A DNA stretch of 64,000 bases from positions 62,001 through 126,000 of the forward strand of contig NZ_FUYK01000007.1 of the NCBI RefSeq assembly GCF_900167955.1, read 5' to 3'. This stretch comes from Candidatus Nitrosotalea bavarica (GTDB taxonomy: Archaea; Thermoproteota; Nitrososphaeria; Nitrososphaerales; Nitrosopumilaceae). A model generated the notes under the pieces. It worked only from the letters and a program-made list of their open reading frames with translations. It searched no databases and was not told where the DNA came from. Below, piece by piece: positions 36,308 through 39,187 of this stretch (position 1 is its first letter; every line of letters begins with the position of its first letter). The position numbers were made by a program, and so were the translations under genes.

Positions 36308-36688
36308 CTATTTTGATCTAGACCATTTTTTCATCCATTGTAAAAGATTAATCATGGATTCAACAAGTTCCTGTCCTTTGTTAGTTAGCTTGTATTCCAC
36401 CCTAGGAGGAATTTCATTATAAGATAATCTTTCCAGCACTCCACTTTTTTCAAGTTCTTTTAATCTAATAGCAAGAGTTTTACTACTAATTCCTTTCAAG
36501 GCCTGTTTGAATTCTTTATGGCGTACTGGTTCTGTTGTACAACACAACGGGATTAGAATTTCAAGTGTACCTCTTTTGGTAATTATTTTTCTCAGCTTTG
36601 ACGTTTCAGACATTAATGAGGAAGCATCATATCCTTCAAAGCTGCAATTATCTTTAACCATTGGAAGTGATTTTCTTTTAGTTTCCAT
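36308..36688 (-). CDS. HxlR-family winged-helix regulator of the arsenic island
   Basis: This 126-residue protein matches the HxlR/MarR-like group: RGTLEILIPL, then RHKEFKQALKGISSKTLAIRLKELEKSGVLER and the wing PPRVEYKLTNKGQELV. It has cysteines at 15, 49 and 50; the adjacent pair lies in the DNA-binding domain, where arsenic sensors can bind As(III). It is divergent from the arsC-arsM-arsC-aqp operon with a 72-nt spacer. Arsenite sensing is an inference from location and the cysteines; the ArsR family itself is not present. Confidence 0.82.
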   Translation of the reverse strand: METKRKSLPMVKDNCSFEGYDASSLMSETSKLRKIITKRGTLEILIPLCCTTEPVRHKEFKQALKGISSKTLAIRLKELEKSGVLERLSYNEIPPRVEYKLTNKGQELVESMINLLQWMKKWSRSK

Positions 36689-36730
36689 CTTTACACTAAC
36701 TGTAATTGTTTATCCTTTACAACTTAAATG

Positions 36731-36745
36731 GTTTACTGAATAAAC
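36731..36745. promoter_or_regulatory. Possible operator: inverted repeat GTTTA-N5-TAAAC
   Basis: A perfect 5-bp inverted repeat (GTTTACTGAATAAAC) lies between a TTAAAT box (36724-36729) and the arsC1 ATG (36761). A further GTTTA half-site lies at 36708-36712, 23 nt away, about two helical turns. The position would block transcription start, as expected for a repressor made by the divergent HxlR gene. Short AT-rich repeats also occur by chance. Confidence 0.35.
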
Positions 36746-36760
36746 TAATACAAGATATAC

Positions 36761-37180
36761 ATGGGATTATTTGGGAAAAAACCAGCAAAATACGTTTTGT
36801 TTGCATGCATAGAAAATGCTGGACGAAGTCAGATGGCAGAAGGTTTCTTTAGAAAATATGCTCCAAAGGGATGGACTGCAATGAGCGGCGGTTCTAGTCC
36901 AAAATCATACGTCAATCCGCTTGCAATGGAGGTGATGAAAGAAATTGGAGTTGACATTAGCAGTCACAAGTCAAAGATACTGTCAGAAGATAAAATCCGA
37001 GGTGCAGAGTTGAAGGTGAATATGGGCTGTATGGATACTACGGAATGTCCAACTCTTATTCTTGGTAATTATGTAGATTGGGGAATTGAGGATCCTAAAG
37101 ACAAACCGATAGAGAAAGTCCGAAAGATAAGAGATGAAATAGAGATTAGAGTAAAAGAACTTGTCAAGGAATTAAAATGA
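36761..37180 (+). CDS. arsC: Arsenate reductase, thioredoxin-coupled LMW-PTP type (copy 1)
   Basis: This 139-residue protein has the low-molecular-weight phosphatase P-loop CIENAGRS (Cys16, Arg22). It also has MGCMDTTECP with Cys90 and Cys96, the pair that relays the disulfide in thioredoxin-linked ArsC, and the acid-loop VDWGIEDP. All three redox cysteines are present, which favours arsenate reduction over tyrosine dephosphorylation. It overlaps arsM by 4 nt (ATGA). A close paralogue lies downstream at 37942. Confidence 0.88.
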   Translation: MGLFGKKPAKYVLFACIENAGRSQMAEGFFRKYAPKGWTAMSGGSSPKSYVNPLAMEVMKEIGVDISSHKSKILSEDKIRGAELKVNMGCMDTTECPTLILGNYVDWGIEDPKDKPIEKVRKIRDEIEIRVKELVKELK

Positions 37181-37935
37181 GTGAAACAATAAAGGAAAAG
37201 GTAAAGGCGAGATACGGCAAGATTGCATTAACTGGCAACTCTGACTGCTGTTGCATGCCCGGCGAATGCAGTACAAATGATTCTGTTATTGATGCTACAA
37301 AAATAATTGGCTATGATCCAAAAGAATTAGAATCAATCCCACAAGAATCCATTTTAGGTGTAGGCTGTGGTGCACCAATAAAATTTGCTGATCTCAAAGA
37401 AGGTGAAACAGTTCTAGATCTTGGTTCAGGTGCAGGAATTGATGCATTCCTGTCTGCAAACAAGGTGTCAAAATCAGGCAAGGTAATTGGTATTGATATG
37501 ACTGATGAAATGTTAGAAAAAGCAAGAACAAATGCACGTAATGGTAATTATACAAATGTAGAATTTAGAAAAGGAGACATTGAAAAAAATATCCCAGTCG
37601 ATGATGATGCCATTGATGCAGTAATCAGTAACTGCGTGATCAATCTTACTTCAGACAAGACAAGTGCCTTCAAGGAGATTTATAGAATATTAAGAAAGGG
37701 CGGAAGAATGGTAATCTCTGATCTAGTCACAGACAGGGAGCTAGAACAAGACCAAGTCAATGCAGAACAATGGTGTAGCTGCATTGATGGTGCATTGACA
37801 CAGGAACACTATATTGAAAGCATCACGAAAGCCGGCTTTCATAATATTAGTGTTCTAGACCAGAGGGTGTACATGGAAGGTGAAAAGGTAAATGGCAGAA
37901 AAATCACCAGCCTTGTAATTAAAGCAATAAAGTGA
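37177..37935 (+). CDS. arsM: Arsenite S-adenosylmethionine methyltransferase (ArsM-like)
   Basis: This 252-residue class I methyltransferase has SAM motif VLDLGSGAGIDAF (79-91), an N-terminal Cys cluster (DCCCMPGEC, Cys24-26 and 31), and Cys64, Cys153 and Cys202. The last three fit the spacing of the As(III)-binding cysteines of known ArsM enzymes. The GVGCGAP and SNCVINL contexts are typical. It lies between two arsC genes, each on the same strand, which strongly supports an arsenic role. Confidence 0.87.
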   Translation: MSETIKEKVKARYGKIALTGNSDCCCMPGECSTNDSVIDATKIIGYDPKELESIPQESILGVGCGAPIKFADLKEGETVLDLGSGAGIDAFLSANKVSKSGKVIGIDMTDEMLEKARTNARNGNYTNVEFRKGDIEKNIPVDDDAIDAVISNCVINLTSDKTSAFKEIYRILRKGGRMVISDLVTDRELEQDQVNAEQWCSCIDGALTQEHYIESITKAGFHNISVLDQRVYMEGEKVNGRKITSLVIKAIK

Positions 37936-37941
37936 TTTTTT

Positions 37942-38364
37942 ATGAATTTTTTCTGGCAACAAAAAGACAAAAAAAAGATTCTATTTGTTTGTGTTGAAAA
38001 TGCAGGACGAAGTCAGATGGCAGAAGGTTTCTTTAGAAAATATGCTCCTACGGGATATGAAGTAATAAGTGCTGGAACAAAACCCACGCCAGAGATAAAT
38101 CCTATTGCCGTAGAAGCTATGAAAGAAATTGGCATAGATCTAAGCAAACAAAAGCCCAAAGTGCTAACTAATGAAATTATTTCCGATTCGATTTTGAGCG
38201 TAAACATGGGATGTATGGATAAAACCGAGTGTCCTGTGGTTTTTATGAAACATTCTGTTGACTGGAACATTGAAGATCCCAAAGGAAAACCCATTGAGAA
38301 AGTCCGAGAGATAAGAGATACCATTGAACTAAAGGTAAGACAACTTTGCAAAACTCTAGAATAA
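37942..38364 (+). CDS. arsC: Arsenate reductase, thioredoxin-coupled LMW-PTP type (copy 2)
   Basis: This 140-residue paralogue of copy 1 has CVENAGRS (Cys17, Arg23), MGCMDKTECP (Cys91 and Cys97) and VDWNIEDP. The stretch AGRSQMAEGFFRKYAP is identical in both copies, while the 50-80 region differs, so the duplication is not very recent. All catalytic residues are kept, so both copies look functional. Its end overlaps the aquaporin start by about 19 nt. Confidence 0.88.
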   Translation: MNFFWQQKDKKKILFVCVENAGRSQMAEGFFRKYAPTGYEVISAGTKPTPEINPIAVEAMKEIGIDLSKQKPKVLTNEIISDSILSVNMGCMDKTECPVVFMKHSVDWNIEDPKGKPIEKVREIRDTIELKVRQLCKTLE

Positions 38365-39029
38365 CAAATTGGTTATCCACTAATCAAAAGAGGTTCTTTG
38401 CTGAATTAATTGGTACATTTGTTGTAGTAGTATTTGCAACAGGTTCTGTTGTACTGGCTGTAAAATATTCTGAAACATTTGGTCTCTGGTTTGTAGCTCT
38501 TGCTCCAGCAGTTGCAGTAACAATAATGGTCTATGCATTTGGAAAAATATCTATGGCACATTTCAATCCAACAGTAACGGTTGGATTTTTTATTACAAAA
38601 CATATGCCAAAGAATCTCTTTCCTGTATATTTCATTGCAGAGATAATTGGTGCACTATTAGGCAGCATCTTTGTAAAATATATTATAGGCACGGAAGCAA
38701 ATCTTGGAGCAAACGCTCCAGATTATCACTTCCAAATTCCTATCATTGTTGGAGTTGAGATTTTAGCTACTGCATTGTTGATGACTGTGATTATGTTAGT
38801 TGTTCATACAAAAGGACTACGAGGATTTGGTGGAATTGTAATAGGTGCAATGGTGGGTCTTGATATCTTCTTTTTTGCATTTATTTCAGGAGCTTCTATG
38901 AATCCCGCAAGAGCATTAGCACCCGCAATAGTATCTGGTTATCTTGATAATCTATGGTTGTACTGGACTGCTCCATTCATAGGGTCTGCAATAATTGCTG
39001 TTATTTACAGAAAAAAGTTTGTGAAATAA
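38346..39029 (+). CDS. Aquaporin-family (MIP) channel, probable arsenite exit channel
   Basis: This 227-residue MIP channel has six membrane spans and two half-helix motifs. The first is altered (HFNPTVT instead of NPA) and the second is canonical (SMNPARA). The start is TTG 38346, overlapping arsC copy 2. In known arsenic operons with an aquaglyceroporin (AqpS type), arsenate taken up as phosphate is reduced and arsenite leaves down its gradient through the channel. No ArsB or Acr3 pump is present here, so that role is plausible but inferred; water or glycerol transport is the alternative. Confidence 0.85.
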   Translation: MQNSRITNWLSTNQKRFFAELIGTFVVVVFATGSVVLAVKYSETFGLWFVALAPAVAVTIMVYAFGKISMAHFNPTVTVGFFITKHMPKNLFPVYFIAEIIGALLGSIFVKYIIGTEANLGANAPDYHFQIPIIVGVEILATALLMTVIMLVVHTKGLRGFGGIVIGAMVGLDIFFFAFISGASMNPARALAPAIVSGYLDNLWLYWTAPFIGSAIIAVIYRKKFVK

Positions 39030-39088: not shown

Positions 39089-39187
39089 GCCGGGGTCGCC
39101 TAGCCTGGTAGGGCGCGCGCCTGGAAATTAGAAAACCATAAAGCGCGTACTCGCAAGGGTTCGAGAGTTCAAATCTCTCTCCCGGCG
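39089..39187 (+). tRNA. tRNA-Ser (GGA anticodon) with a ~15-nt canonical intron
   Basis: The acceptor stem GCCGGGG/TCCCGGC (one G-T pair), discriminator G, T-arm GAGAG-TTCAAAT-CTCTC and a class II variable arm (TACTCGCAAGGGTTC region) mark tRNA-Ser. The anticodon loop CTGGAA gives anticodon GGA. About 15 nt (starting ATTAGAAAACC) lie between positions 37 and 38 and must be spliced so that the GCGCG halves of the anticodon stem pair. The 3' CCA is not fully encoded (CC then T). Confidence 0.92.

What the first reader, a model, noticed from the sequence alone, without database searches (positions are those of the whole stretch)
36308..39029. Pump-free arsenic island: regulator, two ArsC, ArsM and an aquaporin
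The order is HxlR regulator (divergent), arsC, arsM, arsC, MIP channel. No ArsB/Acr3 pump and no ArsR are present. Reduction of arsenate followed by channel exit of arsenite, with methylation as an alternative route, would explain the set. Genes overlap, so expression is coordinated. The combination, with two paralogous ArsC genes around ArsM, is unusual.
Basis: partly seen in the sequence, partly recalled or inferred. Interest (0 to 1): 0.6.

Follow-up and report, generated by a model that had tools for sequence, protein, structure and literature searches.

The report
Pump-free arsenic operon of ammonia-oxidising archaea
Five genes in an ammonia-oxidising archaeon look like an arsenic-detoxifying operon that lets arsenite leak out through a channel instead of pumping it out; the same set is shared by aquatic and soil relatives and is controlled by an unusual, probably arsenic-sensing, regulator.

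Summary
The order is HxlR(-), arsC1, arsM, arsC2, MIP at 36308-39029. The 97%-complete host genome has no Acr3, ArsB/CitMHS or ArsP, and no Cys-bearing ArsR was seen. It is not a one-off island. HxlR<->arsM-arsC-MIP recurs in this order in two families (f1, containing Nitrosotenuis, and f8, apparently Nitrososphaeraceae). A MIP lies directly downstream of arsC at 59/64 f1 and 17/18 f8 loci; Acr3 is absent from all 82 f1 genomes sampled. The core is arsC-MIP; arsM and HxlR are often missing, and arsC1 is a lineage-specific extra paralogue. (1) The HxlR proteins of these loci share an invariant Cys triad (C15, C49, C50); the CC pair is absent from other HxlRs examined. The divergent promoter carries a palindrome beside the TATA-like box, present in 43/43 loci with this HxlR and 1/39 without. 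It is probably a dedicated As(III)-sensing repressor, from a family not linked to arsenite in the held literature. (2) The channels form one clade, nearly all with a Pro-Ile-Ala-Arg filter. Pump-free reduce-and-leak resistance is known (S. meliloti AqpS), so this is a new variant of a known kind. Function is inferred; nothing was assayed.

The parts
36308..36688 (-). HxlR-family regulator with Cys15, Cys49, Cys50 (proposed As(III)-sensing repressor)
   Evidence: Pfam HxlR E 2.4e-21; C15/C49/C50 invariant in 43/43 ars-linked homologues, CC absent from unlinked HxlRs; AlphaFold model resembles EF0647, YodB, HypR
36723..36730 (+). TATA-like box CTTAAATG of the ars promoter (may also serve hxlR in the other direction)
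   Evidence: conserved TTAAATRG in the divergent intergenic regions of both families; promoter role inferred
36731..36745 (.). Proposed operator GTTTACTGAATAAAC, imperfect palindrome directly after the TATA-like box
   Evidence: only site in the genome with <=1 mismatch to the order-wide motif, other hits at control level; motif in 43/43 loci with Cys-triad HxlR and 1/39 without
36761..37180 (+). arsC1: LMW-phosphatase-type arsenate reductase, ArsM-linked paralogue clade
   Evidence: Pfam/NCBIfam; catalytic C, R, S and the GC...CP cysteines conserved; separate supported clade in the ArsC tree
37177..37935 (+). arsM: As(III) S-adenosylmethionine methyltransferase
   Evidence: PRK11873 above cut-off; Cys64/153/202 align with the As(III)-binding Cys of algal ArsM
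37942..38364 (+). arsC2: arsenate reductase, core partner of the channel
   Evidence: closest solved relatives are an arsenate reductase (3t38, E 1e-26) and S. aureus-type ArsC (E 3e-22); C17, R23, S24, C91, C97, D112 invariant in 87/87
38346..39029 (+). MIP channel (aquaporin family) with ar/R filter P54-I174-A183-R189; proposed arsenite exit channel
   Evidence: Pfam MIP E 2e-41; best solved relative by sequence is plant NIP2-1, E 4e-27; PIAR filter in 70/75 arsC-linked homologues; model pLDDT 91

Best explanation
This is a self-contained, pump-free arsenic-detoxification operon of ammonia-oxidising archaea. Arsenate entering by phosphate uptake is reduced by ArsC (ArsC2, with ArsC1 as a helper) using the cell's thiols. 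The uncharged arsenite leaves down its gradient through the dedicated aquaporin-type channel, which works because outside arsenite is low where arsenate dominates. ArsM methylates part of the arsenite as an optional side route. The divergent HxlR protein represses the operon, and probably itself, by sitting on a palindrome next to the TATA-like box; As(III) bound by Cys15, Cys49 and Cys50 releases it. Shown: gene order and conservation, absence of known pumps, catalytic residues, channel clade and filter, and co-occurrence of the palindrome with the Cys-triad HxlR. Inferred: substrates, direction of transport, As(III) as the inducer, and repression rather than activation.
For: No Acr3/ArsB/CitMHS/ArsP in the host; Acr3 in 0 of 82 f1 genomes. 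MIP directly downstream of arsC at 59/64 f1 and 17/18 f8 loci. ArsC Cys/Arg/Ser/Asp invariant 87/87; ArsM As-binding Cys invariant 39/39. The arsenic-linked channels form a 100/100 clade, 70/75 with PIAR, the other 5 HVAR, against HHAR in the paralogue. HxlR Cys triad 43/43; CC pair absent from the non-ars HxlRs fetched. Operator with regulator 43/43, without 1/39, Fisher p 1e-22 uncorrected for relatedness. Five of six bacterial plasmid relatives of the channel whose surroundings were read lie in arsenic-type gene clusters.
Against: No expression, binding, transport or tolerance data. A proline at the H2 filter position is not described for any arsenite channel known to me, and the window's channel has NPT instead of NPA (unlike all 75 homologues). 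Five arsC-linked channels have HVAR instead. Five of 64 f1 arsC loci have no MIP next to them (one of these ends at a contig end). An unknown exporter (MFS, ABC) cannot be excluded. The N-terminal Cys of HxlR/DUF24 proteins also senses oxidants. In f8 some genomes carry Acr3 as well.
Confidence: 0.68

Rival explanations
1. Same detoxification operon, but HxlR is a general redox/electrophile sensor of the HypR/YodB kind and responds to thiol stress (of which As(III) is only one cause), not to As(III) specifically.
For: HypR, YodB and CatR sense oxidants through conserved N-terminal Cys (PMC6943732); closest folds include YodB and HypR.
Against: Two adjacent Cys are invariant besides the N-terminal one, and the CC pair is found only in ars-linked HxlRs. 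The operator occurs once in the genome, upstream of ars genes only, which suits a dedicated sensor better.
Confidence: 0.22
2. The channel's main job is not arsenite exit (water, ammonia, boric acid or methylarsenical passage), and arsenite leaves mainly as methylated species or by an unrecognised exporter.
For: Aquaporins are promiscuous; the filter Pro is unusual; MIPs can also pass methylated arsenicals (PMC4435449).
Against: arsC-MIP is kept where arsM is missing (34 f1 loci have neither ArsM nor HxlR but keep arsC-MIP), so the channel follows the reductase, not the methylase. A MIP is also paired with arsC in the f9/f10 families, in reverse order and from a different MIP clade.
Confidence: 0.12
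3. The LMW-phosphatase proteins are protein phosphatases and the cluster serves signalling, not arsenic.
For: Pfam LMWPc covers both activities; scores are below NCBIfam's ArsC cut-offs.
Against: Nearest solved proteins are ArsC (E 1e-26) rather than phosphatases such as YwlE (2e-6). The extra GC...CP cysteines are invariant, and ArsM with its As-binding Cys is a neighbour.
Confidence: 0.03

Closest known systems
Sinorhizobium meliloti ars operon with AqpS
   Same: Arsenate reduction followed by downhill arsenite exit through a MIP that stands in for ArsB (described in PMC6205960, PMC4435449)
   Different: As I recall it the operon is arsR-aqpS-arsC-arsH: ArsR regulator, ArsH, no ArsM; bacterial. 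The archaeal channel is its own clade with a PIAR filter
Salinispora tropica aquaglyceroporin-ArsC fusion
   Same: Reductase and channel coupled, there in one protein (PMC6205960); here adjacent, often overlapping genes
   Different: Separate proteins, HxlR control, ArsM added
Rubrobacter tropicus plasmid cluster arsM-arsR-phosphoesterase-arsC-arsC-MIP
   Same: Nearly the same parts list: arsM, two arsC, MIP
   Different: ArsR instead of HxlR; a permease-annotated gene precedes arsM; channel about 35% identical with FAAR filter
Prokaryotic AqpN / plant NIP channels
   Same: Best solved sequence match is plant NIP2-1; AQPN is reported in Nitrososphaerota (PMC11316224)
   Different: In the small tree here the archaeal clade is separate from NIP2-1 and the bacterial ars-linked channels, with an unresolved join
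HypR/YodB/HxlR (MarR/DUF24) redox regulators
   Same: Fold and an N-terminal Cys
   Different: Extra invariant CC pair, divergent from arsM/arsC, own conserved operator

Membership tests
Aquaporin-dependent pump-free ars operon (AqpS type) | arsC next to a MIP gene | tested here: met
   window genes; 59/64 f1 and 17/18 f8 loci
Aquaporin-dependent pump-free ars operon (AqpS type) | no ArsB/Acr3 to do the efflux | tested here: met
Aquaporin-dependent pump-free ars operon (AqpS type) | channel conducts arsenite; operon gives arsenate tolerance | not testable with these tools
   needs transport and tolerance assays
Aquaporin-dependent pump-free ars operon (AqpS type) | ArsR regulator | tested here: not met
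   HxlR instead; the best ArsR-fold match elsewhere in the genome has no Cys. So it works like the AqpS system but is not the same operon type
ArsM arsenite methyltransferase | three As(III)-binding Cys (72, 174, 224 of algal ArsM) | tested here: met
   C64, C153, C202 aligned and invariant; criterion from PMC5552862
Thioredoxin-linked ArsC (pI258 type) | P-loop Cys plus Cys82/Cys89 pair, and curated model score | tested here: inconclusive
   three Cys present, third aligned, second offset by one; best score 95 bits against a 215 cut-off
ArsR/SmtB arsenic regulators | HTH_5 fold with As-binding Cys | tested here: not met
   Pfam places the regulator in HxlR, with no HTH_5 match
HxlR/DUF24 regulators | HxlR-like winged helix | tested here: met
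   Pfam PF01638, 75.8 bits against a 20.8 cut-off; fold matches
AqpN/NIP channels | phylogenetic placement with NIP/AqpN | tested here: inconclusive
   sequence search favours NIP2-1; tree leaves the archaeal clade apart

The most novel reading that the evidence does not exclude
Ammonia-oxidising archaea use a previously unrecognised class of As(III) sensor, an HxlR-family repressor with a three-cysteine site, to control a widely shared pump-free ars operon whose channel has a new proline-containing selectivity filter.
Probability: 0.5. Interest if true: 0.68.

Novelty: new variant of a known kind. Interest (0 to 1): 0.58.

Why it matters
Ammonia-oxidising archaea are among the most abundant microbes in sea and soil, and how they handle arsenic seems hardly described. 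If right, they turn arsenate into free arsenite (and some methylated arsenic) without spending energy on export, which predicts tolerance to arsenate but sensitivity to outside arsenite and matters for arsenic cycling. An HxlR-type arsenic sensor with a mapped operator would be a new regulator class for arsenic and a possible biosensor part.

Tried and rejected
Hidden pump: rejected for the known families. A conventional ArsR elsewhere: the best HTH_5 match has no Cys and sits by an SRPBCC-type gene. ArsC as protein phosphatase: rejected by nearest solved relatives and the extra cysteines. arsC1 as a recent tandem copy of arsC2: rejected; 80 of about 139 residues identical, separate supported clade shared with another genus. 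Acr3 and arsC-MIP as strict alternatives: true in f1, but some f8 genomes have both. Filing the channel as AqpN/NIP: left open because the tree does not resolve it. Channel fold search: all aquaporins alike, no functional pointer. Rfam: only the tRNA. PADLOC: a generic methyltransferase match, ignored. A first upstream scan of the operator missed some loci because the ORF starts were called too far upstream; it was redone over whole loci.

Full report
What is there. Searches confirm five genes: hxlR (36308-36688, minus), arsC1 (36761-37180), arsM (37177-37935), arsC2 (37942-38364) and a MIP gene (38346-39029, TTG start). Family searches agree. The host is the genome G000 (1.55 Mb, 19 contigs, 97% complete). 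Its family f1 contains Nitrosotenuis chungbukensis: contig G214:C2 and NZ_AVSQ01000002.1 have the same length, 145,899. A member of the host's own genus is deposited as 'Candidatus Nitrosotalea sp.': G011:C100 and JANWJG010000100.1 are both 52,309 bases.

No pump. Acr3 (TIGR00832), ArsB (PF02040), CitMHS (PF03600) and ArsP (PF03773) are all absent from G000, while the same searches ring in control genomes. In 250 genomes of the order, Acr3 occurs in 33, none of them among the 82 f1 genomes (the 82 were counted from the listing). ArsB was tested only in the 41-genome set, where it was absent from all 25 genomes of the host's genus.

Not an oddity. Gene order was read in 64 f1 arsC loci, 18 f8 loci and 39 loci of other families. 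In f1, a MIP follows arsC at 59 of 64 loci; one of the five without (L183) ends 72 nt after arsC, and another (L181) is in a genome with a separate arsC-MIP pair (L180). In f8, 18 of 18 have a MIP nearby, 17 directly downstream. HxlR<->arsM-arsC-MIP is found at 17 of 18 f8 loci and at 19 f1 loci, so the cassette spans two families (water, groundwater and soil lineages by the record names). Outside these, arsC is next to Acr3 in 6 of the loci read, and in f9/f10 a MIP of another clade lies mostly upstream of arsC, so arsC-channel pairing seems to have arisen more than once.

What is core. arsC-MIP is the most conserved pair; 34 f1 loci have neither arsM nor hxlR. arsM is decaying in several relatives: an apparent internal deletion leaving both gene ends in L109, and split frames in L108 and L113. 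arsC1 belongs to a supported clade (99/97) with ArsM-linked arsC genes of another genus (L181, L196), so it is an older paralogue, not a fresh duplicate. It shares a 189-nt stretch at 71% DNA identity with arsC2, including a run of near-identity. The site between truB and the tRNA/oxidoreductase genes is shared by several congeners, while others have the cluster elsewhere.

Enzymes. ArsC P-loop Cys17, Arg23, Ser24, Asp112 and the pair Cys91/Cys97 are invariant in 87 of 87 homologues. The closest solved proteins are bacterial ArsC. ArsM Cys64, Cys153 and Cys202 are invariant in 39 of 39 and align with the As-binding Cys 72/174/224 of algal ArsM (criterion from PMC5552862).

Channel. The best solved sequence match is plant NIP2-1 (the rice one is Lsi1, from my own knowledge), E 4e-27; by fold all aquaporins look alike. 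Mapped on NIP2-1, the aromatic/arginine filter is P54, I174, A183, R189. It is PIAR in 70 of 75 arsC-linked f1/f8/f3 channels and HVAR in the other 5, while the commonest unlinked paralogue is HHAR. The linked channels form one clade with 100/100 support. That clade also holds two channels not next to arsC, including a second PIAR channel of G000 (L126). The join to NIP/AqpN is unresolved; PMC11316224 reports AQPN in Nitrososphaerota. Six plasmid relatives were read. Alicyclobacillus, one Priestia, Rubrobacter and Oscillatoria lie among annotated arsenic genes; the other Priestia shares the gene order of the first without a gene named for arsenic beyond an ArsR/SmtB regulator; Bradyrhizobium does not lie in an arsenic cluster. 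The Alicyclobacillus channel itself has no listed gene.

Regulator. In 49 distinct ars-linked HxlR sequences (some partial) and in 43 of 43 counted loci, Cys15, Cys49 and Cys50 are invariant. The AlphaFold model (pLDDT 79) resembles EF0647, YodB and HypR. HypR-type proteins sense by an N-terminal Cys (PMC6943732). A three-thiolate As(III) site across C15, C49 and C50 is my inference.

Operator. The divergent intergenic DNA keeps CTTGACAACTTAAATRGTTTACYNNGTAAAC, a TATA-like box followed at once by a palindrome. In the window this is 36723-36745. The pattern has a single <=1-mismatch site in the genome; the remaining 3-mismatch hits are at the level of the reversed control. Across 82 f1/f8 loci it is present (<=3 mismatches) in 43 of 43 with the Cys-triad HxlR and 1 of 39 without (Fisher p 1e-22, not corrected for relatedness); the exception, L111, lies on a contig where an HxlR remnant is detected (L266). 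A palindrome between TATA box and gene start fits a repressor.

Literature. No held paper contains both 'HxlR' and 'arsenite'. Searches for arsenic resistance in ammonia-oxidising archaea found no description of this operon in titles and abstracts. Subscription papers are mostly not held; a 2020 New Phytologist paper on bacterial AqpN in ars operons, known to me from memory, could not be read.

Verdict. New variant of a known kind. The pump-free principle is known from S. meliloti AqpS and the Salinispora fusion (PMC6205960). The widely shared archaeal operon, the Cys-triad HxlR with its operator and the PIAR channel clade appear undescribed in what I could search. Function remains untested.

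Noticed in passing
39089-39187 (+): tRNA with an intron-like insert directly after the MIP gene (anticodon reads as Ser GGA by eye); found by Rfam, missed by ARAGORN.
   Followed up: partly
L162, L171, L186, L205 and similar f1 loci: arsC-MIP loci without HxlR share another conserved upstream box, CATTCATATCAATTTAAATTTATATAAACTRATATTTATGT, perhaps the site of a different regulator.
   Followed up: no
L305, L309, L284, L288: HxlR-type regulators with an N-terminal C-x-C sit beside acr3-arsC (L305, Marsarchaeota), arsC (L309 Bathyarchaeota, L284 Nanoarchaeota) or a weak Acr3-like gene (L288): HxlR control of ars genes may have arisen more than once.
   Followed up: partly
L126 (G000:C15:311979-312611): Second channel with the PIAR filter in the host genome, 55% identical, not beside arsC.
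   Followed up: partly
38565-38573: The window's channel has NPT instead of the first NPA motif, unlike all 75 homologues compared.
   Followed up: no
L127 (G000:C15:239523-241369): The other HxlR of the host lies about 0.9 kb after its HHAR aquaporin.
   Followed up: no
L115, L222, L223, L224, L232, L234, L236: In f9/f10 families a MIP with FIAR filter from a different clade pairs with arsC, mostly upstream of it.
   Followed up: partly
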